64,000 bases of DNA. Origin: Spirochaetota bacterium (GTDB lineage: Bacteria > Spirochaetota > UBA4802 > JAFGJZ01). Where the stretch lies: NCBI GenBank assembly GCA_027858855.1, contig JAQIBV010000056.1, positions 1-64,000 of the forward strand, read 5' to 3'. The notes under the pieces were generated by a model. It was not told the origin of the DNA. It ran no database searches and saw only the letters and a list, made by a program, of their open reading frames with translations. Made by a program: the position numbers and the translations under genes. Positions 37,004-48,333 of this stretch are shown piece by piece (positions within the stretch are counted from its first letter, which is position 1; each line of letters begins with the position of its first letter).

Positions 37004-38608
37004 ATGGAAACCTACGCACTACTGGGTGACGAGGCGATTGCACTCGGCGCAGTTGACGCGGGAATCTCGGCAGCATACGGCTATCCGGGCACCCCGTCTA
37101 CAGAAATAATGGAGTACCTGCAGCACATCAACAAAGAGACAGGGAAACCCCTAGCTCGCTGGAGCGCCAACGAGAAGACTGCTTACGAAGAGGCTCTTGG
37201 CACCTCTTTCTATGGAAAACGCGTTCTGGTTACAATGAAACATGTTGGACTTAATGTTGCTGCCGATGCATTCATGAACTCGGCGCTTCTTGATATACGT
37301 GGCGGACTGGTTCTGGCAATTGCTGATGACCCTGGCATGCACTCTTCACAGAACGAACAGGATAGCCGCTACTACGCAGATTTTGCCCACATCCCCTGCT
37401 TTGAACCTTTTAACCAGCAAGAAGCCTACGATGTAATGTCCGAGGCCTTCGAACTCTCGGAAAAATTACATGTACCTGTAATGATTCGCCTTGTAACACG
37501 CCTGTCTCACTCACGGGCTGCGATAAAGACTTCACCTCGAAAGCCAGAAAACCCCGGAATAAAGGCTCCCGATGTTAAACAGTGGATGTTGCTTCCGGCA
37601 CTTGCAAGGAAACAGTGGCATCAGCTATTAGGCAAAGATGTTCAAATGAAGCAGTTCTCTGAAACGAGCTCTTGGAATAGTTTGGAGCTTAACAGCAAAT
37701 CGGTGGGTGTCATAACATCGGGTCTTGGAAAGAACTATTTTTTAGAAAACTCTTCGGAATATACTGAAAACTACAGCCACCTGCACATCGGATGCTACCC
37801 CCTTCCGACCGACAGGATCAACAAGCTGGCATCACACTGTGAAACCCTGATTGTCGTAGAAGAGGGAGAACCCCTGATAGAAAAACAACTTCGTGGAATA
37901 CTTCCACAATCAACAAATATTAAGGGTAAACTTTCGGGTGATATTCCGCGTGAAGGCGAACTGACCCCCGACACCATTAGATCCGTATTTGGACTATCTC
38001 CGAAAGAGCAGATTACCTTCGACAGCTCGGAACTTCCTGGACGGCCACCACAATTATGCAAGGGCTGTCCTCACGACGACACCTACAAATTTATAAAAGA
38101 GGTCGTTTCAGAGCTTTCTGAAAGCGCAGTAATGTCGGATATCGGCTGCTATGCCCTTGGAGCACTACCTCCGCTTCAGGTACCCGAAACTATTGTCTGT
38201 ATGGGGGCATCCATCACAATGGCGAAGGGAGCTGCAGAAGCTGGCATGGATAATGTTATGGCCGTTCTTGGAGACAGTACTTTTTTCCATTCAGGACTAA
38301 CCGGCCTGGTAGACTGTGTAGCCGACAACGCATCCGTTACAATTCTTGTGCTGGATAACTCAACTGTTGGAATGACAGGTGGCCAGGAGACTATACTACC
38401 ATCGGACAGAATTAAACAGATCGCACTGGGTATTGGTGTACACCCAGATCATATCCATGTAATAGATGCACACAAAAAAGATCATGAGCAGAATGTACAG
38501 CTTTTAAAAGATGAACTTGCCTACAAAGGTGTATCACTTATTATTCCGGTACGAGAATGTATTGAATACTTCCGCAAGAAAAAACGTACTGAAAAAAAGG
38601 AGAACTAA
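37004..38608 (+). CDS. iorA: Indolepyruvate:ferredoxin oxidoreductase alpha subunit, lacking ferredoxin domain
   Basis: 534 residues. The N-terminal pyrimidine-binding half has GDEAIALGAVDAGISAAYGYPGTPSTE, and the C-terminal TPP-binding half has KGCPHDDTYK, DIGCYALGALPPL, and VLGDSTFFHSGLTGLVD with LDNSTVGMTGGQE. The enzyme oxidatively decarboxylates aryl pyruvates to aryl-acetyl-CoA with ferredoxin as acceptor. Usual IorA proteins end in a two-cluster 4Fe-4S domain of about 60 residues. Here the protein stops after CIEYFRKKKRTEKKEN, so that domain is missing and electrons must leave by another route. GAGGAGA precedes the ATG. Part of the symporter-ior-ligase operon. Confidence 0.88.
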   Translation: METYALLGDEAIALGAVDAGISAAYGYPGTPSTEIMEYLQHINKETGKPLARWSANEKTAYEEALGTSFYGKRVLVTMKHVGLNVAADAFMNSALLDIRGGLVLAIADDPGMHSSQNEQDSRYYADFAHIPCFEPFNQQEAYDVMSEAFELSEKLHVPVMIRLVTRLSHSRAAIKTSPRKPENPGIKAPDVKQWMLLPALARKQWHQLLGKDVQMKQFSETSSWNSLELNSKSVGVITSGLGKNYFLENSSEYTENYSHLHIGCYPLPTDRINKLASHCETLIVVEEGEPLIEKQLRGILPQSTNIKGKLSGDIPREGELTPDTIRSVFGLSPKEQITFDSSELPGRPPQLCKGCPHDDTYKFIKEVVSELSESAVMSDIGCYALGALPPLQVPETIVCMGASITMAKGAAEAGMDNVMAVLGDSTFFHSGLTGLVDCVADNASVTILVLDNSTVGMTGGQETILPSDRIKQIALGIGVHPDHIHVIDAHKKDHEQNVQLLKDELAYKGVSLIIPVRECIEYFRKKKRTEKKEN

Positions 38609-38609
38609 G

Positions 38610-39176
38610 ATGAAATACGATATAATTCTTTGCGGTGTCGGTGGGCAAGGTGTTCTCTCCGTTGCTGCCGCTATTGCAACTGCAGCGGGAATAGAAGATC
38701 TGCATGTGCGCCAATCAGAAGTTCATGGCATGGCACAACGAGGCGGTGCCGTTTTATCACATCTGCGAATCTCGGACAGTGAAATATACAGCGACCTCGT
38801 CCCCCAAGGCAGCGCTGACATGGTGCTAAGCATGGAACCACTTGAATCTCTCCGCTATATTTCGTTTCTGAAGCCAGAGGGAGTCTTAATCAGCGCCCAG
38901 GAACCTTTTATTAATATCAGCAACTATCCTGAACTCTCGTCTATACACGACCAGATATCTAAAATTGACAATTCTGTTCTTGTGAATACAGAGAAAATTG
39001 CAAAAGCGGCTCAAAATCCAAGAGCTGCTAACATGGCAATAGTAGGTGCCGCTGGTAAATATCTTCCTGTAAAAATGGAATCACTGCACAAGGCTGTTAG
39101 TATTCTTTTTAAGAACAAGGGGGAGGACATAGTTAAGAAAAATCTATCAGCAATAGACTTAGGCGGAGCAATATGA
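38610..39176 (+). CDS. iorB: Indolepyruvate:ferredoxin oxidoreductase beta subunit
   Basis: 188 residues from the ATG at 38610 behind AAGGAG; the longer frame from 38511 overlaps iorA and lacks support. It starts with the family signature ILCGVGGQGVLSVAAAIATAA and contains RQSEVHGMAQRGGAVLSHLR and GSADMVLSMEPLESLRY, as in the gamma-type domain of 2-oxoacid:ferredoxin oxidoreductases. It binds CoA or completes the heterodimer with IorA. Its stop overlaps the ligase start (ATGA). Confidence 0.93.
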   Translation: MKYDIILCGVGGQGVLSVAAAIATAAGIEDLHVRQSEVHGMAQRGGAVLSHLRISDSEIYSDLVPQGSADMVLSMEPLESLRYISFLKPEGVLISAQEPFINISNYPELSSIHDQISKIDNSVLVNTEKIAKAAQNPRAANMAIVGAAGKYLPVKMESLHKAVSILFKNKGEDIVKKNLSAIDLGGAI

Positions 39177-40474
39177 TTTCATGCTATAGTGACTCAGAAA
39201 TACAGATGTTTGACCATGAAACTCTTCGCGCGTTACAACTGATACGTTTTAAGAAAATAGTTTCACAGGCATTAAAAACTGAATTTTACCGAACAAAACT
39301 GGGTAGTGTCGGAATTAAACACTCCTCCGACATTACCAGCATTAACGACATACAGAAAATTCCGTTTACAACAAAAGAAGATCTTCGCGACACCTATCCC
39401 TACGGTCTTCTTGCCGCCGACAAAGACGATGTTGTTAGAATGCATGCATCAAGCGGAACCACCGGTAAGCCCACCGTTATTTACCAGACACAAAGCGACC
39501 TGGACAACTGGACAAATCTGACTGTCCGGTCGCTCATAGCTACGGGCTGTTCGCACAAAGATGTCTTTCAGAACATGATGACCTACGGTCTTTTTACCGG
39601 GGGAATCGGTCTGCATTATGGAGCCGAAAAACTGGGAATGTTTGTTATTCCGGCTTCCAGTGGAAACACCAAACGACAGTTTATGCTGATGAAAGATTTT
39701 CAAACTACGGTTGTTCACGCAACCCCCAGCTATATGCTGCACCTCTTTTCAGAAATAGAGCCACTAGGTTTTGATCTTAAAGACTTCAAGATAAAAAAAG
39801 CAATGATTGGTGCCGAACCTCATTCAGAGGAGATTCGCCGAAAAATTGAGGAGTGCTTCGGCATTGATGCTTATAACTCATACGGATTATCTGAAATGAA
39901 TGGCCCCAGTGTTGCCTTTGAATGTGAACATAAAAATGGTATGCACCTTTGGGAAGATTCATATATTTTGGAAATTGTAGATAAGAATAATCTGACACCA
40001 CTTGAAGATGGAAATCTGGGTGAACTGGTCTTGACCAATCTTATCAGAGAGTCTACACCGATTATCCGTTACCGAACGCGCGATTTAACAAAAGTTATAC
40101 CTGGTGACTGCCCCTGTGGACGAACAGCTCGACGCATCGACCGGATCTTCGGGCGCACTGACGACATGCTTATAATTAACGGTGTAAACGTCTTTCCTTC
40201 TCAAATTGAAGAGGTCATAATGAAAATGCCTTCTATCGGAAACAACTACCGTATTGTAATACGAAAGAAAGGGATTCTGGATCAACTAATTATCGAAACA
40301 GAGGTAAACAGCGAAATCATTATCGATGACACACGAAAACTGTATGCCCTTCGTGACCGCATTAAGGAAGAGCTGCGTGCATCAATCACAATTTCACCTC
40401 AAATCGAATTTCACGAACCCGGCCGGCTTCCTGTTCAACAGGGAAAAGCTATTCGCGTAGTAGATGAACGGTAA
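39173..40474 (+). CDS. Phenylacetate-CoA ligase family enzyme (AMP-forming)
   Basis: 433 residues, the usual PaaK size. Motifs are the AMP-binding loop SSGTTGKPTVIYQT, AKKAMIGAEPHSEEIRRKIEE-like region (IKKAMIGAEPHSEE), YGLSEMNGPSVAFEC, IRYRTRDLTKV, and the C-terminal domain FGRTDDMLIINGVNVFPSQIEE. PaaK enzymes convert arylacetates to their CoA thioesters with ATP. Next to iorAB the enzyme could run with aryl-acetyl-CoA in either direction: activating imported arylacetates, or conserving energy as arylacetate plus ATP. It overlaps iorB by four bases, the last gene of the operon. Confidence 0.92.
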   Translation: MISCYSDSEIQMFDHETLRALQLIRFKKIVSQALKTEFYRTKLGSVGIKHSSDITSINDIQKIPFTTKEDLRDTYPYGLLAADKDDVVRMHASSGTTGKPTVIYQTQSDLDNWTNLTVRSLIATGCSHKDVFQNMMTYGLFTGGIGLHYGAEKLGMFVIPASSGNTKRQFMLMKDFQTTVVHATPSYMLHLFSEIEPLGFDLKDFKIKKAMIGAEPHSEEIRRKIEECFGIDAYNSYGLSEMNGPSVAFECEHKNGMHLWEDSYILEIVDKNNLTPLEDGNLGELVLTNLIRESTPIIRYRTRDLTKVIPGDCPCGRTARRIDRIFGRTDDMLIINGVNVFPSQIEEVIMKMPSIGNNYRIVIRKKGILDQLIIETEVNSEIIIDDTRKLYALRDRIKEELRASITISPQIEFHEPGRLPVQQGKAIRVVDER

Positions 40475-40566
40475 GCCGAACAAGGTCATTATACCCGGTA
40501 ACAGACAATGTAATGATTAGTATAACTAACATCTAAACAAAGAACTTGTTTATAACCCAGGTACAG

Positions 40567-41784
40567 ATGATACATAAAAACATGGACGCCTTTATTATTA
40601 CACCTCAACTGATTTTATATTTTTTTCCAGTTTACGGTTTCTTTGGGTGGATAGGAGAGGTAATATACCGCTCGGTAACAAGGCGCCACTTGACCAACCC
40701 GGGGCTATTGACCGGCCCGGTGTTGCCACTCTATGGAACAGCAACAATAGTTATAATCTATATTTCTTCACTATTTCCTGTAAACAATCCAGTATTTGAT
40801 TTTATATTTTTCGCCATATTCTGCTCAATTATAGAATACCTGGCGGCCACTTTAGCAGAGAATTATTTCAAAGTACGACTGTGGGAATACGACGACTATA
40901 AGTTCAACCTGAAGGGAAGAATTTGCCTGCGATTTGCATTCTACTGGGGGCTCTATGCCCTGCTTTTCCTCTACATCATTCACCCCTTTACATATAAGCT
41001 GTTCAAAACAATAAAAAACAGTGTTCCCCATGACAAAGCAAGCTCTATTACTTTCATACTGATTGCAATTAATTCTATTATTATTATTGATTTCATGATT
41101 TCAGCAAAAACCATGAAAAGGTTTGTCATTACACTCAACAAATTCATTGAAGACTACGTCTCGCTTGAAAATGAGCAGATACAACAATACTTTTACAAAA
41201 TGCGTAAACCTTTAAGGTCTTTCAAGGCAATCAGGAAATATGCAGATTATGAGATCAGAAAACGACTGAATAAAAACTTCACTGAGCAACTGAATGGAAT
41301 AAAAAAATTAATGAATGGAAAACTTTTTTCTCTAAAAGCTAGCGAAAAAGAGTTTAAGGAAATATCTGAAGAAATTATAAGTAATCTGGAATATATGAAA
41401 CTCGCAGACTTTCTTCATCATGACGCATCTATACTCGACCACTCACTCAAGGTCGCATATGCCTCTTACAAAATTTCTAAATTTATGGGGCTGGACTACA
41501 TATCAACCACTAGAGGGGCGCTTCTTCATGACTTTTTTCTTTATGATTGGCGCTCTTTAGAAGGCAGGCCATACAAAGGACGATGGCATGGATTCAAACA
41601 TCCAAAAGTAGCACTTGCCAATGCAGAAAAGCAATTCAAACTGAATAAAATTGAAAAAGATATAATCCTAAAACATATGTGGCCTCTGACAATCTTCCTG
41701 CCAAAATATCGGGAATCAATTTTAGTCTCAGCTGTTGATAAGTATATATCTTCTATCGAAACAGTCAAAGCAATGAAAAAATAG
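40567..41784 (+). CDS. CmpB-like membrane domain fused to HD hydrolase domain
   Basis: About 405 residues. The start is uncertain; the ATG at 40567 has a weak CAGG upstream. Residues about 15-145 hold four membrane helices of the putative ABC-transporter type IV family (PF06541-like): FPVYGFFGWIGEVIYRS, GLLTGPVLPLYG, LWEYDDYKFNLKGRICLR. A basic linker follows. Residues about 270-405 are an HD domain: FLHHDASILDHSLKVAY, GALLHDFFLYDW, GFKHPKVALANA, KDIILKHMWPL. HD enzymes hydrolyse phospho-ester bonds, often in signalling nucleotides. The combination is found in some anaerobes, but the role is unknown. Downstream lie two hairpins. Confidence 0.78.
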   Translation: MIHKNMDAFIITPQLILYFFPVYGFFGWIGEVIYRSVTRRHLTNPGLLTGPVLPLYGTATIVIIYISSLFPVNNPVFDFIFFAIFCSIIEYLAATLAENYFKVRLWEYDDYKFNLKGRICLRFAFYWGLYALLFLYIIHPFTYKLFKTIKNSVPHDKASSITFILIAINSIIIIDFMISAKTMKRFVITLNKFIEDYVSLENEQIQQYFYKMRKPLRSFKAIRKYADYEIRKRLNKNFTEQLNGIKKLMNGKLFSLKASEKEFKEISEEIISNLEYMKLADFLHHDASILDHSLKVAYASYKISKFMGLDYISTTRGALLHDFFLYDWRSLEGRPYKGRWHGFKHPKVALANAEKQFKLNKIEKDIILKHMWPLTIFLPKYRESILVSAVDKYISSIETVKAMKK

Positions 41785-41785
41785 C

Positions 41786-41839
41786 AGTCGAGTTGTCTAT
41801 GCAGGCAACCCGACTTGAAACAAGCTCTAAAGCTTGTTT
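41786..41839. terminator. Pair of hairpins between convergent genes
   Basis: First stem: AGTCGAGTTG (41786-41795) with CAACCCGACT (41806-41815), one mismatch. Second stem: AAACAAGCT (41818-41826) with AGCTTGTTT (41831-41839), perfect, loop CTAA. The second overlaps the stop codon of the minus-strand lipoprotein gene. Together they probably end both convergent transcripts. Confidence 0.7.
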
Positions 41840-42273
41840 ATTGAGGCTTTCACCAGCTCGATCTTAATATAAGAATCATCAAGAAGCTGAAAAAATTTAG
41901 AAAAATCACCCTTTGCAGAAATCTCTGAAGAGTCCGTTTGGAGTGATGCAATCAGTTTAATATTATTGCTGTATAAATAGAGATCAACAGGCCCCTTATC
42001 TGTTTCAACGCGGACAACAACAGCAAACTTGTAATCTACATTCATCGACTCAATAATATTAACAACCTTTGCCCTAGGAACGACAACAATCTTCTTATCC
42101 AACTCTTTTTTCATTAACTGCCGCTGAGCCGGATTTGACATTTTATCCATACGATTCTTGTAGATTATAGCCTGATCTACAGTTATCTCGCTCTTAAAAA
42201 AACCCTGCACAGTAGCACAACCTGAAATAGAAAAAAGCAGAACCGCACAAACAATCATATAACTTCTTCTCAT
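41827..42273 (-). CDS. Small lipoprotein of unknown function
   Basis: 148 residues. The signal peptide ends LLFSISGC, giving a lipidated Cys near residue 19. The mature part is mixed alpha/beta (VVVRVETDKGPVDLYLYSNNIKLIASL) without a motif I recognise. AGAGG lies six bases before the ATG. It stands alone on the minus strand downstream of the molybdoenzyme operon by direction, separated by 93 bases from the ferredoxin gene stop, so read-through co-expression is not implied: it precedes nothing else on that strand. Probably anchored in the periplasm. Confidence 0.7.
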   Translation of the reverse strand: MRRSYMIVCAVLLFSISGCATVQGFFKSEITVDQAIIYKNRMDKMSNPAQRQLMKKELDKKIVVVPRAKVVNIIESMNVDYKFAVVVRVETDKGPVDLYLYSNNIKLIASLQTDSSEISAKGDFSKFFQLLDDSYIKIELVKASINKL

Positions 42274-42366: not shown

Positions 42367-43149
42367 TTAACTTATTTTTTTGCCGGTAACAACAAAATGA
42401 AGCAAACGGTATAACTTTCCCGAAAAGCCATAAGCCGCTGATCCGGTACGGGTAAAGATCGATACAGTTGAAAATAGTCCATTAACCGTGCGAATTAAAG
42501 AATTATCAAATGATATTTTTTGCTTATCACTCGATACCGTATGTATTTTTAAAACATTCTCACCCCGATGTTCTGTTAAACCGGTCAAATGGGCTTCAGG
42601 ATATCTCTTTTTAAGATCAGCTACTCTTTTTAAGGCTTTCTGTATCAGTTTCATACGATAATCGTATTGCAAGGCTCCTGTTGGACAGTTTGTAACACAG
42701 GCAGGTGTCGAGGAATAATTTACAGAGCAACCATCACATTTATATGCGATACCCTTCTGTAAAAACCCACGGGAATCTGCGCGATGGACTTTAACTGCGC
42801 CATAAGGGCACGCCATTGTGCAGGCTCCACATCCGATACATGTATCATAATCGGTAACAACCCAGCCCGACTGATACGAAATAGCCTTAACCGGACAGCT
42901 TTTCACACAGTAGGCATCGCTACAGTGGTGACACAGTTCAGGGCTTATGCTCCAGCTTTCAGAATCTGAAGAAGAACGTACAACAAGCCAGTTCTGTGGA
43001 CGAAAATCTTCAACTGTAGATCGATCTCCATCAGTTTTATTCGCCCCACCACTAAGCGGCAGTGAATTCCAGGACTTACAGCTGAAATAACAGCTATTAC
43101 ATCCACAACACCTGGACGAATCAATCAGAATCGATTTTTCACCTGCCAC
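42367..43149 (-). CDS. 4Fe-4S electron-transfer subunit of molybdopterin oxidoreductase (DmsB/HybA-like)
   Basis: 260 residues from GTG at 43149, chosen because GGAGG (43156-43160) is six bases upstream; an in-frame ATG at 43179 lacks one. Four cysteine clusters are visible: CCGCNSCYFSC, CHHCSDAYCVKSCP, CIGCGACTMACPYGAV, and CDGCSVNYSSTPACVTNCP, enough for four [4Fe-4S] clusters. The family passes electrons between the molybdopterin subunit and the membrane. Its start overlaps the stop of the catalytic subunit gene by 11 bases. No membrane-anchor subunit gene follows in the window. Confidence 0.92.
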   Translation of the reverse strand: MAGEKSILIDSSRCCGCNSCYFSCKSWNSLPLSGGANKTDGDRSTVEDFRPQNWLVVRSSSDSESWSISPELCHHCSDAYCVKSCPVKAISYQSGWVVTDYDTCIGCGACTMACPYGAVKVHRADSRGFLQKGIAYKCDGCSVNYSSTPACVTNCPTGALQYDYRMKLIQKALKRVADLKKRYPEAHLTGLTEHRGENVLKIHTVSSDKQKISFDNSLIRTVNGLFSTVSIFTRTGSAAYGFSGKLYRLLHFVVTGKKIS

Positions 43150-45910
43150 GGCTCGCCTCCTTCTGAACTGAAACAACAACAGGGAACTTGGAGCGACCCT
43201 GCTTTATATCCTGACTGTATAAAAGCTCGCGTGAAGCTGACCCTGCAATTTTTACATACCTTTTATCGGCAATGCGATCTGTCACATATAACGGCAATCG
43301 AGTGAAGCCTTCAGCAGTTTTAACCGAAACATAATCCCCGTTCACAAAACCACCATCACGAGCAGCATCTTTGTGCATTAACAAAAAATCTTCGGGAAAA
43401 TACTCACGGTAATATTTATACTTCTGCGCCATATCAGCCTCACCATAATCAGATCCGAAAAGCAAATATGATGATTCCTGAATTTCCGGCAAAACAGTTA
43501 ACGAACCTAATGGAATCGGACCACTTTTCATTTTGCGGGCAAAAAGATAGGCAACCCCATCTTTATTAAAATAAAAAGGGCGACGACGGGCACGCTGACC
43601 TGTAATTGCAGCATTATCCTCGACAGCAACACTCTTCGCATGCCGAGGTTCCCCGTCTTTAAAAATAACGCCTGCATTGTTAAACAGAACCTGAGCTCCG
43701 GCAGGCCAACACCTATCTGTGTTGCGCAGGAGTGACTGCTGTGGTGCGGAATCCCTTTTTAGCAATGATTTCGAACCTATTAAATCGGCGTATAACCAGT
43801 TACCGCAGAAATAGGGCGGCTGGTGGAAATTTTCTTTTTTATTCTCACTATCTTCAGCAACTGTTTCTACTGTCTGTTCTCTGGAATATCCGGCCATCTC
43901 TTTCGCTACCGATTTGACTGATGAATAATTCCAAGCACACCTTACAATTGGTTCCGAGAACACGCCTCCCTTTAGTTTTTGAAGGGCAATCATTTTTTTC
44001 GCCACCCCCTGCAAAGCCAGGGCTATTCCCGGCAGACTCTTTTGACGCAACGAAAGACCTTTCTTTGCTATAAAACGTCTCTCTGAAGACACAAAATGCA
44101 GTGAAGCAGAAGGGAAAGCGGGAAGAGGAACAATTATTACAGTGGTATCTTTCGAGAATGAAGTTCCTCCAATATAACGACTGAAATCGCCTGGAAAAGT
44201 TTCAAACATTATTATCCACGATAATTTCTTTAACGCACTCTTTAATCTTTCACGTGGAACAGGCATATTAAACAGATCGGCTTCAAAGAGCGTGAGTCCC
44301 TTTATAGTACCGGCATCTATATCGTTAAGAAGCTGTGACCAATTATAACCCGAACTGGTTCTGGGGAGCATATCAAAAACAGCCTTTGCATCTTCATCAG
44401 GAAACCAGCAGTGCATTAGAGATTCGAAATAGCCCTTAAATCCGGTCCAGAAATGGCTAACGCTGAAGTCATTACTTTTATGGCTGTTATTCCTGATATA
44501 TAAATCATAGTCGTTTTCCATTTTTTCGCTATCAGGCAGGGGAAGGTATCCGGGAAAACAATTCCACCCCCCTATCTGGTCACTGATACCCTGTTGGTTT
44601 GCACTGTTATTAATACCATACAGCCCTCCTCCGGCTATTCCAATGTTACCACACAGTAGCTGCATAACAGATACAGCCCTTACCCCTTGCGCGCCAGCAG
44701 ATTCAGTCAACCCACCACCAAATAGAAAAGAACAGCTCTTAGCCGGACGCGAAGAGGCCGCAAGTTCTCCGGCAACATGCAGAAAAAGATCAGAACTGAT
44801 ACCTGTACGATTCATAACCCGATCAGGAGTATATTGTGAGTAATTGTTTTTTAGGATTTGAAATACACAATTACTACGTTTCAAATTATAATCAGTTTTG
44901 GGGTTACCCCGTTCATCTATAATATATGACCATGTCAGTGTATCATACTCTTTACCCTCTCCGCTAAAACCACTGAAGTTCCCATTACTATCAACTCGAA
45001 ACGACTCATTTACAAGGAAAGGAGCATCGGTATTATCCCGCAGATACTCTTTGTCTATGCTGTCATTGTGCAGCAGATAACGAATGAGCCCACATAGCAG
45101 AACAAGGTCGGTACCGGGACGAATAGCCAGGTGAATATCTGCTATTTTTGCTGTTTCACTCAAAACCGGGTCAATAACAACCAGCAGGGCGCCCCGTTTT
45201 CGAGCCTCGGTTATTGCGACAAGCTGCATGGGGCTTGTGCGAACCGGGTTTGATCCGATTACAACTATCAAATCACTGTTCTTAATATCATAATGGGGAT
45301 TAGTCTGTGCCGCTATTCCATAGGTTGCCCTCAACGCAGTAGCTGCCGCCTCATGCTTGATGAGAGCCTCTGTTCCTACTCGGGTTAAGCCTGCAACACG
45401 GCTGAACTTATTAATAACATATGCATCTTCACATGAAACAGAGTCTCCGACAACAACGGCAATTGATTCGCAATTATTTGCTTTTAAACCAGAACGGTCT
45501 ATTGCGAAAGATTCTTCTCGAGTAGCATGTATCAGTTCGGCACATTCTCCCAAAAGTGTGCTGTAACTTCTATTTTCAAAACCATTTGAATCGGCATATC
45601 TGATTACGCCAAGTTCCCGCAACGATTTCTGATTTGCCAGAAATGGAATCATATGAGCCTTCGGGCAAAGCCTGCCACCACTTTCAAATGAGCTCTTTTC
45701 AGCTTCTACAGCTGTGATAACAGAATCCCGGTAATGTATAATAAGGGCACAATTAAGACCGCAAAAGGGGCAAAAGCCACGCTGCGAACTGCTTTTTCGT
45801 TTAAAAAAGGGAATGCAGCTAACATAGTCGAAGATGGCAAGACCGCCGGTGGCAGCTACTCCGCATATTGCAGTGGCTATTTTTAGAAAATTCCTACGGG
45901 TAACCTGCAT
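43139..45910 (-). CDS. Tat-exported molybdopterin oxidoreductase with Lys at the metal-ligand position
   Basis: 923 residues from the ATG at 45910 (GGAGG upstream). A Tat signal, TRRNFLKIATA, is followed by the [4Fe-4S] set Cys47, Cys50, Cys54 and Cys82. Sequence blocks follow formate dehydrogenases: AVVVGDSVSCEDAYVINKF, SDLIVVIGSNPVRTSPMQL, VVIDPVLSETAKIADIHLAI. Where FDH has Sec/Cys-His-Gly-Pro, this protein reads EALIKHEAAATAL, placing Lys185 at the Mo/W-ligand position while His186 is kept. The C-terminal MopB domain is present (VNGDYVSVKTAEG). It is therefore FDH-like but unlikely to be a standard formate dehydrogenase; reaction unknown. Paired with a four-cluster subunit. Confidence 0.88.
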   Translation of the reverse strand: MQVTRRNFLKIATAICGVAATGGLAIFDYVSCIPFFKRKSSSQRGFCPFCGLNCALIIHYRDSVITAVEAEKSSFESGGRLCPKAHMIPFLANQKSLRELGVIRYADSNGFENRSYSTLLGECAELIHATREESFAIDRSGLKANNCESIAVVVGDSVSCEDAYVINKFSRVAGLTRVGTEALIKHEAAATALRATYGIAAQTNPHYDIKNSDLIVVIGSNPVRTSPMQLVAITEARKRGALLVVIDPVLSETAKIADIHLAIRPGTDLVLLCGLIRYLLHNDSIDKEYLRDNTDAPFLVNESFRVDSNGNFSGFSGEGKEYDTLTWSYIIDERGNPKTDYNLKRSNCVFQILKNNYSQYTPDRVMNRTGISSDLFLHVAGELAASSRPAKSCSFLFGGGLTESAGAQGVRAVSVMQLLCGNIGIAGGGLYGINNSANQQGISDQIGGWNCFPGYLPLPDSEKMENDYDLYIRNNSHKSNDFSVSHFWTGFKGYFESLMHCWFPDEDAKAVFDMLPRTSSGYNWSQLLNDIDAGTIKGLTLFEADLFNMPVPRERLKSALKKLSWIIMFETFPGDFSRYIGGTSFSKDTTVIIVPLPAFPSASLHFVSSERRFIAKKGLSLRQKSLPGIALALQGVAKKMIALQKLKGGVFSEPIVRCAWNYSSVKSVAKEMAGYSREQTVETVAEDSENKKENFHQPPYFCGNWLYADLIGSKSLLKRDSAPQQSLLRNTDRCWPAGAQVLFNNAGVIFKDGEPRHAKSVAVEDNAAITGQRARRRPFYFNKDGVAYLFARKMKSGPIPLGSLTVLPEIQESSYLLFGSDYGEADMAQKYKYYREYFPEDFLLMHKDAARDGGFVNGDYVSVKTAEGFTRLPLYVTDRIADKRYVKIAGSASRELLYSQDIKQGRSKFPVVVSVQKEASRGR

Positions 45911-46170
45911 CTTTCCTCCGGTAACAGGGGTACAGTGTATGCATAAAGAAAACTGCGTCAACCCACTTTAGGCTCCGCAAAATTCATTTCAACATAAATT
46001 TCACTTAGACATTTCAGAAAAAAATCGATTGAGAGTCTATAACCGTCTCAATCATCAATTTCTTGTTTTTAAAAGTTTGCTGGTATAAAACTATGACGAC
46101 CCTATAATTTAAGGTCGTGCTTAAGACGAGGAGTCGCCGGCTAAAATAGCCGGCCATGATTGCAGGGCAT
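45911..46170 (-). other. Gap with two hairpins downstream of the 55-residue gene
   Basis: GCCGGCTA (46136-46143) pairs perfectly with TAGCCGGC (46147-46154) around AAA, and ACGACC (46096-46101) pairs with GGTCGT (46113-46118). Both lie just after the minus-strand stop at 46171, as expected for a transcript end, although neither has a T run. The rest holds only the ribosome site for the molybdoenzyme gene. Confidence 0.5.
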
Positions 46171-46338
46171 TCACTTTGTGAGGTAGTGAGACAGGTCTGT
46201 AGCAATTCGCGAAATCGCGAAATCGATGTAACTCTCATCAGAAATGAGCTGTTTGTACTTATCAACACGTGCTGCACCGTGTTCTACACCTAAACCTGAC
46301 TCAATCTCACGTCCCTCCTTGAGCATGAGATTTTCCAT
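46171..46338 (-). CDS. 55-residue protein of unknown function
   Basis: The ATG at 46338 has AAAGGAG at good spacing; longer in-frame starts (46440) lie in the leader and lack a site. The protein (MENLMLKEGREIESGLGVEH..., ending YIDFAISRIATDLSHYLTK) is charged and helical with no membrane segment. The C-terminal rhythm K..LI.D.SYIDF.I..IA..L loosely recalls the sigma-28-binding end of FlgM, but this is a weak guess. It has its own promoter, an ordered leader and downstream hairpins, so it is a real expressed gene in my view. Confidence 0.55.
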   Translation of the reverse strand: MENLMLKEGREIESGLGVEHGAARVDKYKQLISDESYIDFAISRIATDLSHYLTK

Positions 46339-46380
46339 GACGAAACTCCTTTTTCGGCATCCTGTTCCTCCTTGAACAGG
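46307..46380 (-). other. Nested leader mini-ORF (17 codons) behind a Shine-Dalgarno hairpin
   Basis: On the minus strand, CCTGTTC and GAACAGG form a perfect 7-bp stem (46361-46380) whose six-base loop displays AAGGAG. Directly after it, an ATG at 46360 opens a 17-codon frame (MPKKEFRHGKSHAQGGT) ending at 46307. It overlaps the first 11 codons of the 55-residue gene in another frame. The layout resembles translational control, but no expression evidence exists. Confidence 0.4.
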
Positions 46381-46467
46381 GAGATCATACCTAATAAAAA
46401 GTTCGGGCAAAATGCCAAATTTAATTAACATTTCTTTCATTTGTAATGAAAAAAATGCACTTATTTA

Positions 46468-46551: not shown

Positions 46552-46905
46552 TCAGCGCATAATATCCTTGTGCCAGCTCAATTCACCACAATCAATCGCT
46601 ATCAGATCAAAACGGCACTCAATTTCGTTATTTGGAGGGTACACAAAGGCAAGATATGATTCGGCACATTTACGTATCCGTTTCAGCTTGGTCGGTCGTA
46701 TTGAATAGAGAGCGCCACCCATACTATCGCTGTATCGGGACCGTACCTCAACAAACAGAAGCAGTTTATCTTTCTGGGCGATGATATCAATTTCTGCATA
46801 ACGACCAAAACGGTAATTTCTAGTTATTATTGAAAAACCCTGCTCTTTTAAAAAAAGCTCGGCGCGATCTTCCCCTTGGTCGCCTTTTCCATGACGATCA
46901 TCCAT
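46552..46905 (-). CDS. yraN: YraN-family (UPF0102) nuclease-like protein
   Basis: 117 residues, the usual size. The nuclease-like fold is marked by GEDRAELFLKEQGFSIITRNYRFGRYAEIDIIAQ and then LLFVEVRSRYSDSMGG, matching the family E-x-D-x-V-x-K pattern with Arg in place of the usual Lys (EVRSR; EVK/R is common in this family). The fold resembles Holliday-junction resolvases, but no activity is established. Its ATG overlaps the stop of the HD-GYP gene. Last gene of the rpsP operon. Confidence 0.92.
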   Translation of the reverse strand: MDDRHGKGDQGEDRAELFLKEQGFSIITRNYRFGRYAEIDIIAQKDKLLLFVEVRSRYSDSMGGALYSIRPTKLKRIRKCAESYLAFVYPPNNEIECRFDLIAIDCGELSWHKDIMR

Positions 46906-48068
46906 TAAAAGAGCTCTGAAAGGTTTATACCAGCCTTATACTCATCAATCGTCTGTGTAATAAAAAGATCGAATTCCTCAACCAGATTAACTATTTCAAC
47001 ACCTTTAACCCGCTGACCACTTTCATCCCGTACCATCTTTACAATGGGGCGCAAGGGATTATTCTTAATGGTTCCGATAACAACGCCAATCTTCTTGTTA
47101 TTCAGCTCTACCAACGAACCAATCGGGTACACTGAAAGAATAGAGATAAACACACGTAAAATGACCGGATCAAACTTTCGGGCACCAGTTGCCACAAGCT
47201 GCTTCATAGCTGTATAGTAGAAGTGACGTGGGCGATAGCTCTTCTTCTCGACCATAGCCTCATAGTTATCAGCAACCGAAGCTATACGCGCAGCCTCCAT
47301 AATCTCGATGCCCTTAATATGCTTAGGATAACCGGCACCATTAAACTGTTCATGATGTTGAAGCGAAATTTGTGCTATATCTTCAGACATATTTCCAAGA
47401 TTTTTTAATACCTGATAACCATAAATCGGATGACTCTTAATCTGCTGAAGTTCACGTTCGTTCAGATCACCCTCTTTATTCAGAATGTAGGCCGGAATCT
47501 GTACCATACCGGCATTTATGAGCAAAACACCGAGCCCCAGATCTTTAACTTTTGAACGGGAATACTCCAGAGCAAGACCAATTACCATTGCATAAATAGC
47601 TGCATTAACACTATGCACAGCCATTGTATCCTTCTCATTCTCACGACGCTGCACAAAGAGAAAGACATTCCGGTTCTGTCGAATCAGTGAATAAATATCT
47701 TCAACACACTTAGTCAGATCCTGAATATGGAAGATACGGTCATTCCGAATGGCGGTATGAATCTTAGCCACCTCTTTCACACTTCTTTCATGAACCTCAA
47801 GCAATTGGTCTTTTAATGAAATAAGAACATTATAACTATCAAGAACCTTATTGAACTGTTCAGATATGGTGACATTATTGCCGCTTGCAGCACCCGATAG
47901 CAGCTGGCCTTCAGTTGTGACTTCACTGATACCCCATTTCATTAACCGCTTTATATCCGATTCCTGTATAGGTACATTGGCATTGGCAAGCACATTGCTA
48001 TTGTCAATCAGCACCTCTTTTGTAAACCGCATACCGGGTTTCAGCTCTTCTACAAGAATCCTTTTCAT
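46905..48068 (-). CDS. HD-GYP-like protein lacking the HD dyad
   Basis: About 387 residues from the ATG at 48068. The N-terminus (ILVEELKPGMRFTKEVL) is the usual DUF3391-like lead. The catalytic region reads VHSVNAAIYAM, then VLLINAGMVQIPAYIL where HD-GYP enzymes have LLHDIGKxxIPxxIL. The metal-binding His-Asp is therefore Ile-Asn. Downstream, LQHHEQFNGAGYP keeps the GYP motif. The protein is thus probably unable to hydrolyse cyclic di-GMP and may be a binding or scaffold protein. The C-terminus (VIGTIKNNPLRPIVKMV) is also family-like. Located in the ribosomal/flagellar-type operon between the FlhB-like gene and yraN. Confidence 0.85.
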   Translation of the reverse strand: MKRILVEELKPGMRFTKEVLIDNSNVLANANVPIQESDIKRLMKWGISEVTTEGQLLSGAASGNNVTISEQFNKVLDSYNVLISLKDQLLEVHERSVKEVAKIHTAIRNDRIFHIQDLTKCVEDIYSLIRQNRNVFLFVQRRENEKDTMAVHSVNAAIYAMVIGLALEYSRSKVKDLGLGVLLINAGMVQIPAYILNKEGDLNERELQQIKSHPIYGYQVLKNLGNMSEDIAQISLQHHEQFNGAGYPKHIKGIEIMEAARIASVADNYEAMVEKKSYRPRHFYYTAMKQLVATGARKFDPVILRVFISILSVYPIGSLVELNNKKIGVVIGTIKNNPLRPIVKMVRDESGQRVKGVEIVNLVEEFDLFITQTIDEYKAGINLSELF

Positions 48069-48075
48069 TCCAGAC

Positions 48076-48333
48076 TTATTCCACACCTTTTATTCTATAG
48101 CAGTAGGCAATTACTTCGGCAACCGCCCTATAAAGATCAGGAGATATCTCCTCTCCCTCAGGTAATGCATACAACGCTTCAACCAAATCACGATCCTGAT
48201 ATTGAACAATATTGTTTTTTTTTGCAATGCTCATGATGATATCAGCCAGTTCACTTTTCCCTTTTAGCATAACACGGGGCGCATGATCCGTGACCTCATT
48301 ATATTGAAGGGCAACAGCCTTTTTATCTTTCAC
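48076..48333 (-). CDS. FlhB C-terminal domain-like protein (FlhX type)
   Basis: 85 residues corresponding to the cytoplasmic C-terminal part of FlhB/EscU export-switch proteins: VALQYNEVTDHAPRVMLKGK, ADIIMSIAKKNNIVQYQDRDLVEALYALPEGEEISPDLYRAVAEVIAYCY. The membrane part and the NPTH autocleavage site are absent (family: NPTH; here there is no such motif). Such stand-alone paralogues exist in flagellated bacteria and can partly replace the FlhB tail. The start is GTG just after the upstream stop. Supports a flagellated organism. Confidence 0.88.
   Translation of the reverse strand: MKDKKAVALQYNEVTDHAPRVMLKGKSELADIIMSIAKKNNIVQYQDRDLVEALYALPEGEEISPDLYRAVAEVIAYCYRIKGVE

What the first reader, a model, noticed from the sequence alone, without database searches (positions are those of the whole stretch)
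43139..45910. Formate-dehydrogenase-like molybdoenzyme with Lys where Cys/Sec binds the metal
The segment EALIKHEAAATAL aligns with the FDH block ARVU/CHGPSVAGL; the metal ligand becomes Lys185 while the next His is kept. The codon is AAG and the sequence around it is unambiguous, so it is not a missed Sec codon. An FDH lacking a thiolate or selenolate ligand should have altered chemistry.
Basis: partly seen in the sequence, partly recalled or inferred. Interest (0 to 1): 0.6.

Follow-up and report, generated by a model that had tools for sequence, protein, structure and literature searches.

The report
Metal-free formate dehydrogenase relic, wiring intact
This spirochaete gene looks like a formate-oxidising enzyme, but it has lost its metal-binding site and its genome shows no means of making the metal cofactor, while every residue that holds the iron-sulphur electron wire is kept; it is probably a former enzyme now used as an electron-carrying or structural part.

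Summary
In detail: window 43139-45910 (-) encodes a full-length FDH-N/W-FDH alpha-subunit homologue, and Lys185 (AAG) aligns without a gap to Sec192 of D. vulgaris FdhA. The second catalytic residue, Arg441, is Asn. The implied reading, an FDH with altered Mo/W chemistry, is not supported. The site is Arg in a same-genus relative and Ser in two same-family relatives. MoaA, MoaC and MoeA are undetected in all four genomes of the family; in the order, 28 of 30 genomes at least 90% complete have MoaC, and the two without are from this family. The dinucleotide-binding domain is decayed. All 4 Fe-S cysteines of this subunit and all 16 of the co-encoded FdhB-like subunit are kept although half or more of the other otherwise invariant residues changed; dN/dS is low. 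Best explanation: a cofactor-free, non-catalytic FDH module kept for its five-cluster wire or scaffold, comparable to QrcB, ActB, NuoG and Dehalococcoides OmeA. The locus sits in the place of the Sec-FDH operon of related families. Ligand-less versions occur in three species lineages of the order, suggesting repeated loss in place, although the gene tree favours one origin. New variant of a known kind.

The parts
43139..45910 (-). FdnG/FdhA-like MopB protein, 923 aa (P0001), metal-ligand residue lost
45818..45910 (-). N-terminal twin-arginine-type signal (MQVTRRNFLK + hydrophobic stretch)
   Evidence: sequence; NCBIfam TIGR01409 above its cut-off; R5 kept in all 9 ligand-less proteins
45665..45772 (-). 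FS0 [4Fe-4S] motif C47-x2-C50-x3-C54 ... C82
   Evidence: Pfam Molybdop_Fe4S4; the four Cys invariant in all ligand-less and canonical proteins
45356..45358 (-). Lys185 codon AAG at the position of the Sec/Cys metal ligand
44609..44611 (-). Asn434 at the position of the catalytic Arg (Arg441 in D. vulgaris FdhA)
43265..43429 (-). remnant of the C-terminal dinucleotide-binding domain (Molydop_binding, 20.2 bits, below cut-off 26.8)
42367..43149 (-). FdhB-like subunit with four [4Fe-4S] clusters, GTG start overlapping the end of the alpha gene
   Evidence: 16/16 cluster Cys kept
41827..42273 (-). small conserved lipoprotein-like protein, also downstream of Sec-FDH in related families
46552..46905 (-). 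YraN-like protein, syntenic marker upstream
46905..48086 (-). HD-GYP-like protein, syntenic marker upstream

Best explanation
The gene pair encodes a cofactor-free derivative of a periplasmic FdhAB/FdnGH formate dehydrogenase. The alpha subunit keeps the MopB fold and its N-terminal [4Fe-4S] cluster motif but has lost the Mo/W ligand, the catalytic Arg and much of the dinucleotide-binding domain, and the organism appears unable to make molybdopterin. The partner keeps all ligands for four [4Fe-4S] clusters. The pair therefore most likely works as a five-cluster electron-transfer module or scaffold between other redox proteins, with no formate chemistry of its own. Shown: loss of catalytic residues, absence of detectable Moco genes, preservation of 20/20 cluster cysteines, low dN/dS. 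Inferred: that the clusters are built and carry electrons, the cellular location, and the existence of an unknown donor and acceptor.
For: Ligand site K/R/S/S in the four family members, against strictly U or C in all canonical FDHs of the order that cover the site. MoaA, MoaC and MoeA absent in 4/4 family genomes, with 11 of 14 control genomes positive for each; MoaC in 37/46 genomes of the order, and the only two of 30 genomes at least 90% complete without it are G000 and G087; MoeA in 32/46. Only one PF00384 protein in the genome. Of 193 columns invariant in 32 canonical FDHs, G000 and G146 keep 47-48% and G087/G219 29-30%, against 95-99% for canonical members left out one at a time, yet C47, C50, C54 and C82 are all kept. 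FdhB partner: 16/16 Cys kept, other invariant columns 39-49% kept in the family. Molydop_binding score 66.7 in a canonical FDH, 20-23 in G000/G146, none in G087/G219. dN/dS 0.11 (alpha) and 0.09 (beta) for G087/G219, so not a pseudogene. Predicted fold closest to W-FDH (TM 0.83). Precedents QrcB, ActB, NuoG/Nqo3, FhcB (PMC6303296, PMC13059093, PMC10100899) and the Ser-for-Sec/Cys FDH-like protein of Dehalococcoides (PMC5736913).
Against: The three relatives are metagenome assemblies and the window's genome is a draft in 63 contigs, so absence of genes is an inference from 66-97% complete genomes. TatC was not found in G000, G146 or G219 although TatA is present, so export of a folded Fe-S protein is uncertain. 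No membrane anchor or redox partner was identified next to the pair. Five other ligand-less members (G154, G020, G170, G082, G127) live in genomes with MoaC, four of them also with MoeA, so the loss of the ligand did not everywhere coincide with loss of the cofactor pathway.
Confidence: 0.72

Rival explanations
1. A true molybdo- or tungsto-enzyme whose cofactor is held without a protein ligand, as in AioA/IdrA, with Lys or Arg near the metal giving new chemistry.
For: Ligand-free Mo sites exist: AioA and IdrA have no amino-acid ligand (PMC10100899). The fold and His186 are kept. The ligand-less relatives in f3 and f5 live in genomes with MoaC and mostly MoeA and keep a domain IV scoring above cut-off.
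Against: No MoaA, MoaC or MoeA in any of the four genomes of this family. The position is K, R or S even within the family. Catalytic Arg lost and domain IV decayed.
Confidence: 0.07
2. A purely structural subunit or one decaying towards loss, with no electron transfer; the clusters are kept only because they hold the fold together.
For: Fast evolution, large loss of otherwise invariant residues, and no identified redox partner or membrane subunit. QrcB, the closest functional analogue, is reported to carry no redox cofactor (PMC13059093).
Against: All 20 cluster cysteines kept in both subunits while half or more of the other invariant columns change; dN/dS about 0.1; operon and lipoprotein neighbour kept across two genera.
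Confidence: 0.18
3. An artefact: sequencing error, missed Sec codon or contaminating contig.
For: The genome is a draft in 63 contigs.
Against: AAG codon in an intact 923-codon frame; the same-genus genome has the orthologue in the same gene order with Arg; conserved neighbours; two further genomes of the family with Ser.
Confidence: 0.01

Closest known systems
Periplasmic FdhAB / FdnGH formate dehydrogenase (D. vulgaris W-FDH, E. coli FDH-N)
   Same: Full-length homology, TAT-type signal, FS0 cluster motif, four-cluster beta subunit, same genomic place as the Sec-FDH of related families
   Different: No Sec/Cys ligand, no catalytic Arg, decayed domain IV, no Moco biosynthesis detected in the genome
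QrcB (of the QrcABCD complex of sulfate reducers) and ActB of alternative complex III
   Same: MopB-fold subunits reported to lack the Mo/W cofactor, paired or fused with an Fe-S subunit (PMC6303296, PMC13059093)
   Different: Other branches of the superfamily; complexes with NrfD/QrcD-type membrane proteins and cytochromes, not seen beside this gene. NCBIfam QrcB scores 45.7 against a cut-off of 440
Dehalococcoides FDH-like protein OmeA (DET0187)
   Same: FDH-N-like protein with Ser for Sec/Cys, no FDH activity, proposed electron-transfer part of a hydrogenase-dehalogenase complex (PMC5736913, PMC10772276)
   Different: Chloroflexi; acts with OmeB and the Hup/Rdh proteins; in PMC10772276 still modelled with bis-MGD. 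Here the Moco pathway is undetected and the partner is an FdhB-like protein in the same operon
NuoG/Nqo3 of complex I
   Same: MopB-fold subunit without Mo/W-bisPGD (PMC10100899)
   Different: Cytoplasmic, different architecture; weak NuoG match only (31 bits)

Membership tests
Formate dehydrogenase alpha subunit (FDH-N / W-FDH) | Homology over the full length and MopB fold | tested here: met
Formate dehydrogenase alpha subunit (FDH-N / W-FDH) | Sec or Cys metal ligand | tested here: not met
   Lys185
Formate dehydrogenase alpha subunit (FDH-N / W-FDH) | Catalytic His and Arg of the active site | tested here: not met
   His kept (H186), Arg replaced by Asn434
Formate dehydrogenase alpha subunit (FDH-N / W-FDH) | Mo/W-bisPGD cofactor available in the organism | tested here: not met
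   No MoaA, MoaC, MoeA in 4 family genomes
Formate dehydrogenase alpha subunit (FDH-N / W-FDH) | NCBIfam equivalog cut-off TIGR01553 | tested here: not met
   452.6 bits against 814.2
Formate dehydrogenase alpha subunit (FDH-N / W-FDH) | N-terminal [4Fe-4S] cluster ligands | tested here: met
   C47, C50, C54, C82
QrcB / cofactor-less MopB of Qrc | NCBIfam QrcB cut-off | tested here: not met
   45.7 bits against 440
QrcB / cofactor-less MopB of Qrc | Operon with NrfD-type membrane subunit and multihaem cytochrome | tested here: not met
   Neighbours show neither beside the gene; elsewhere in the genome not tested
OmeA of Dehalococcoides | Association with OmeB, Hup hydrogenase and reductive dehalogenase | tested here: inconclusive
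   None of them beside the gene; rest of genome not searched
Cofactor-less MopB proteins in general | No bound Mo/W-pterin in the protein | not testable with these tools
   Inferred; needs metal analysis

The most novel reading that the evidence does not exclude
Within one order of Spirochaetota the Sec-FDH operon was converted in place, at least three separate times, into a ligand-less electron-transfer module; in one family this went on to loss of the whole Moco pathway, leaving an FDH-shaped Fe-S relay as the only MopB protein of the cell.
Probability: 0.4. Interest if true: 0.68.

Novelty: new variant of a known kind. Interest (0 to 1): 0.5.

Why it matters
It is a natural experiment: an FDH heterodimer that keeps every electron-wire ligand after both the active site and the cofactor pathway are gone argues that the Fe-S relay or scaffold of FDH has a role apart from formate chemistry. 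It gives graded intermediates (ligand lost with cofactor pathway kept; then pathway lost and pocket eroded) for how cofactor-free MopB subunits such as QrcB, ActB and NuoG could arise. It also warns that annotation as formate dehydrogenase in these genomes would be wrong.

Tried and rejected
Alternative register with Cys, Ser or Asp as ligand: none, alignment is ungapped. Missed Sec codon: AAG. Lys-sharing clade: not found; K, R, S, S in the family and S, S, D, P, R or G in the five others. Pseudogene: low dN/dS; the G000/G146 value of 0.15 rests on saturated dS and is weak. One origin or several: the FDH gene tree puts all nine ligand-less proteins in one clade (SH-aLRT 96) and AU tests reject the two placements expected from synteny (p 0.016 and 0.0055), but these are the longest branches in the tree; the RpoB+RpoC species tree needs three changes, with G154/G020 nested among canonical f3 genomes, and gene order matches canonical loci. 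Left open. The AI-2E neighbour tree did not resolve it. A first FdhB count failed through one truncated sequence and was redone. L042 from the genome scan proved to carry Cys at the site, with a nitrite-reductase-like gene beside it. The structure model is of middling quality (pLDDT 64.5) and its alignment held canonical FDHs, so it supports the fold only.

Full report
Observation. The ORF at 43139-45910 (-) encodes 923 aa with a twin-arginine-type N-terminus, the FS0 Fe-S motif and a full-length match to FDH-N/W-FDH alpha subunits. K185 stands exactly under Sec192 of D. vulgaris FdhA and His is kept next to it; the codon is AAG. Arg441 is replaced by Asn434.

The site is not a Lys site. Orthologues in the same genus (G146, 57% identical) and family (G087, G219) have Arg, Ser and Ser there. 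Named records on contigs of the same length as those three are Spirochaetes/Spirochaetota MAGs JAFGRW010000066.1, JAKPJF010000073.1 and JAKJGA010000035.1. All canonical FDHs of the order that cover the site have U or C with an invariant His and an invariant Arg.

No cofactor. MoeA, MoaC and MoaA (C-terminal domain) are undetected in all four genomes of the family, each search ringing in 11 of 14 controls. In the order MoaC is in 37 of 46 genomes; of 30 genomes at least 90% complete only G000 and G087 lack it. MoeA is in 32 of 46, with a few canonical-FDH genomes also lacking a hit, so MoeA alone would be weak. The protein is the only PF00384 match of its genome.

What is kept and what is lost. 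Of 193 columns invariant in 32 canonical FDHs, G000/G146 keep 47-48% and G087/G219 29-30%; canonical members left out one at a time keep 95-99%. The four FS0 cysteines are kept in all nine ligand-less proteins. In the co-encoded FdhB-like protein all 16 cysteines are kept while only 39-49% of the other 61 invariant columns are (family members). Domain IV falls from 66.7 bits in a canonical FDH to 33-42 in ligand-less proteins of genomes that have MoaC, 20-23 in this genus and none in the sister genus. dN/dS for G087/G219 is 0.11 (alpha) and 0.09 (beta), against 0.017 for the neighbouring HD-GYP gene: constrained, though less than its neighbour. The predicted fold is nearest W-FDH (TM 0.83; pLDDT 64.5).

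Wider setting. Five more ligand-less FDH homologues with FdhB partners occur in the order: G154 and G020 (f3), G170, G082 and G127 (f5). MoaC is found in all five genomes and MoeA in four. The loci of this family match the order HD-GYP, YraN, (AI-2E), FDH, FdhB, lipoprotein of the Sec-FDH loci in f4, and partly f7; G154/G020 match the canonical G139 locus. The RpoB+RpoC tree spreads the ligand-less genomes over three lineages, but the FDH tree makes the proteins one clade. Long branches make the gene tree doubtful; synteny makes repeated conversion in place attractive. I leave the number of origins open.

Mechanism. The most economical reading is a non-catalytic FDH module: electron wire FS0 to FS4 or scaffold kept, active site discarded. 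Donor, acceptor and location are not known. TatA is present in all four genomes but TatC was found only in G087, so export in this genus needs checking. Known parallels are QrcB, ActB, Nqo3 and FhcB (PMC6303296, PMC13059093, PMC10100899) and the Ser-substituted FDH-like protein of Dehalococcoides (PMC5736913). I found no paper among those searched that describes the spirochaete case; that is a limited search of open-access text.

Verdict. Real, mis-read as altered chemistry, better read as a cofactor-free former FDH. New variant of a known kind.

Noticed in passing
G000, G146, G219 genomes: TatA is present but TatC is not detected in the window's genus, although the FDH-like protein keeps its twin-arginine signal; G087 of the sister genus has TatC.
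   Followed up: partly
window 46170-46400 (-): Small ORF between YraN and the FDH-like gene, present also in G146, resembling a FlgM-type protein by eye; not searched against families.
   Followed up: no
window 40546-41784 (+): Fusion of a CmpB-like membrane domain (PF06541) with a C-terminal HD-like domain (below cut-off).
   Followed up: no
L043, L044, L045, L046, L047: Five further ligand-less FDH alpha homologues in Spirochaetota of other families, in genomes that have MoaC; these could be ligand-free molybdoenzymes and deserve their own study.
   Followed up: partly
window 37004-40474 (+): Indolepyruvate ferredoxin oxidoreductase-like genes and a phenylacetate-CoA-ligase-like gene lie beyond the lipoprotein on the other strand; same neighbours in G146. 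Names by eye except the AMP-binding domains.
   Followed up: no
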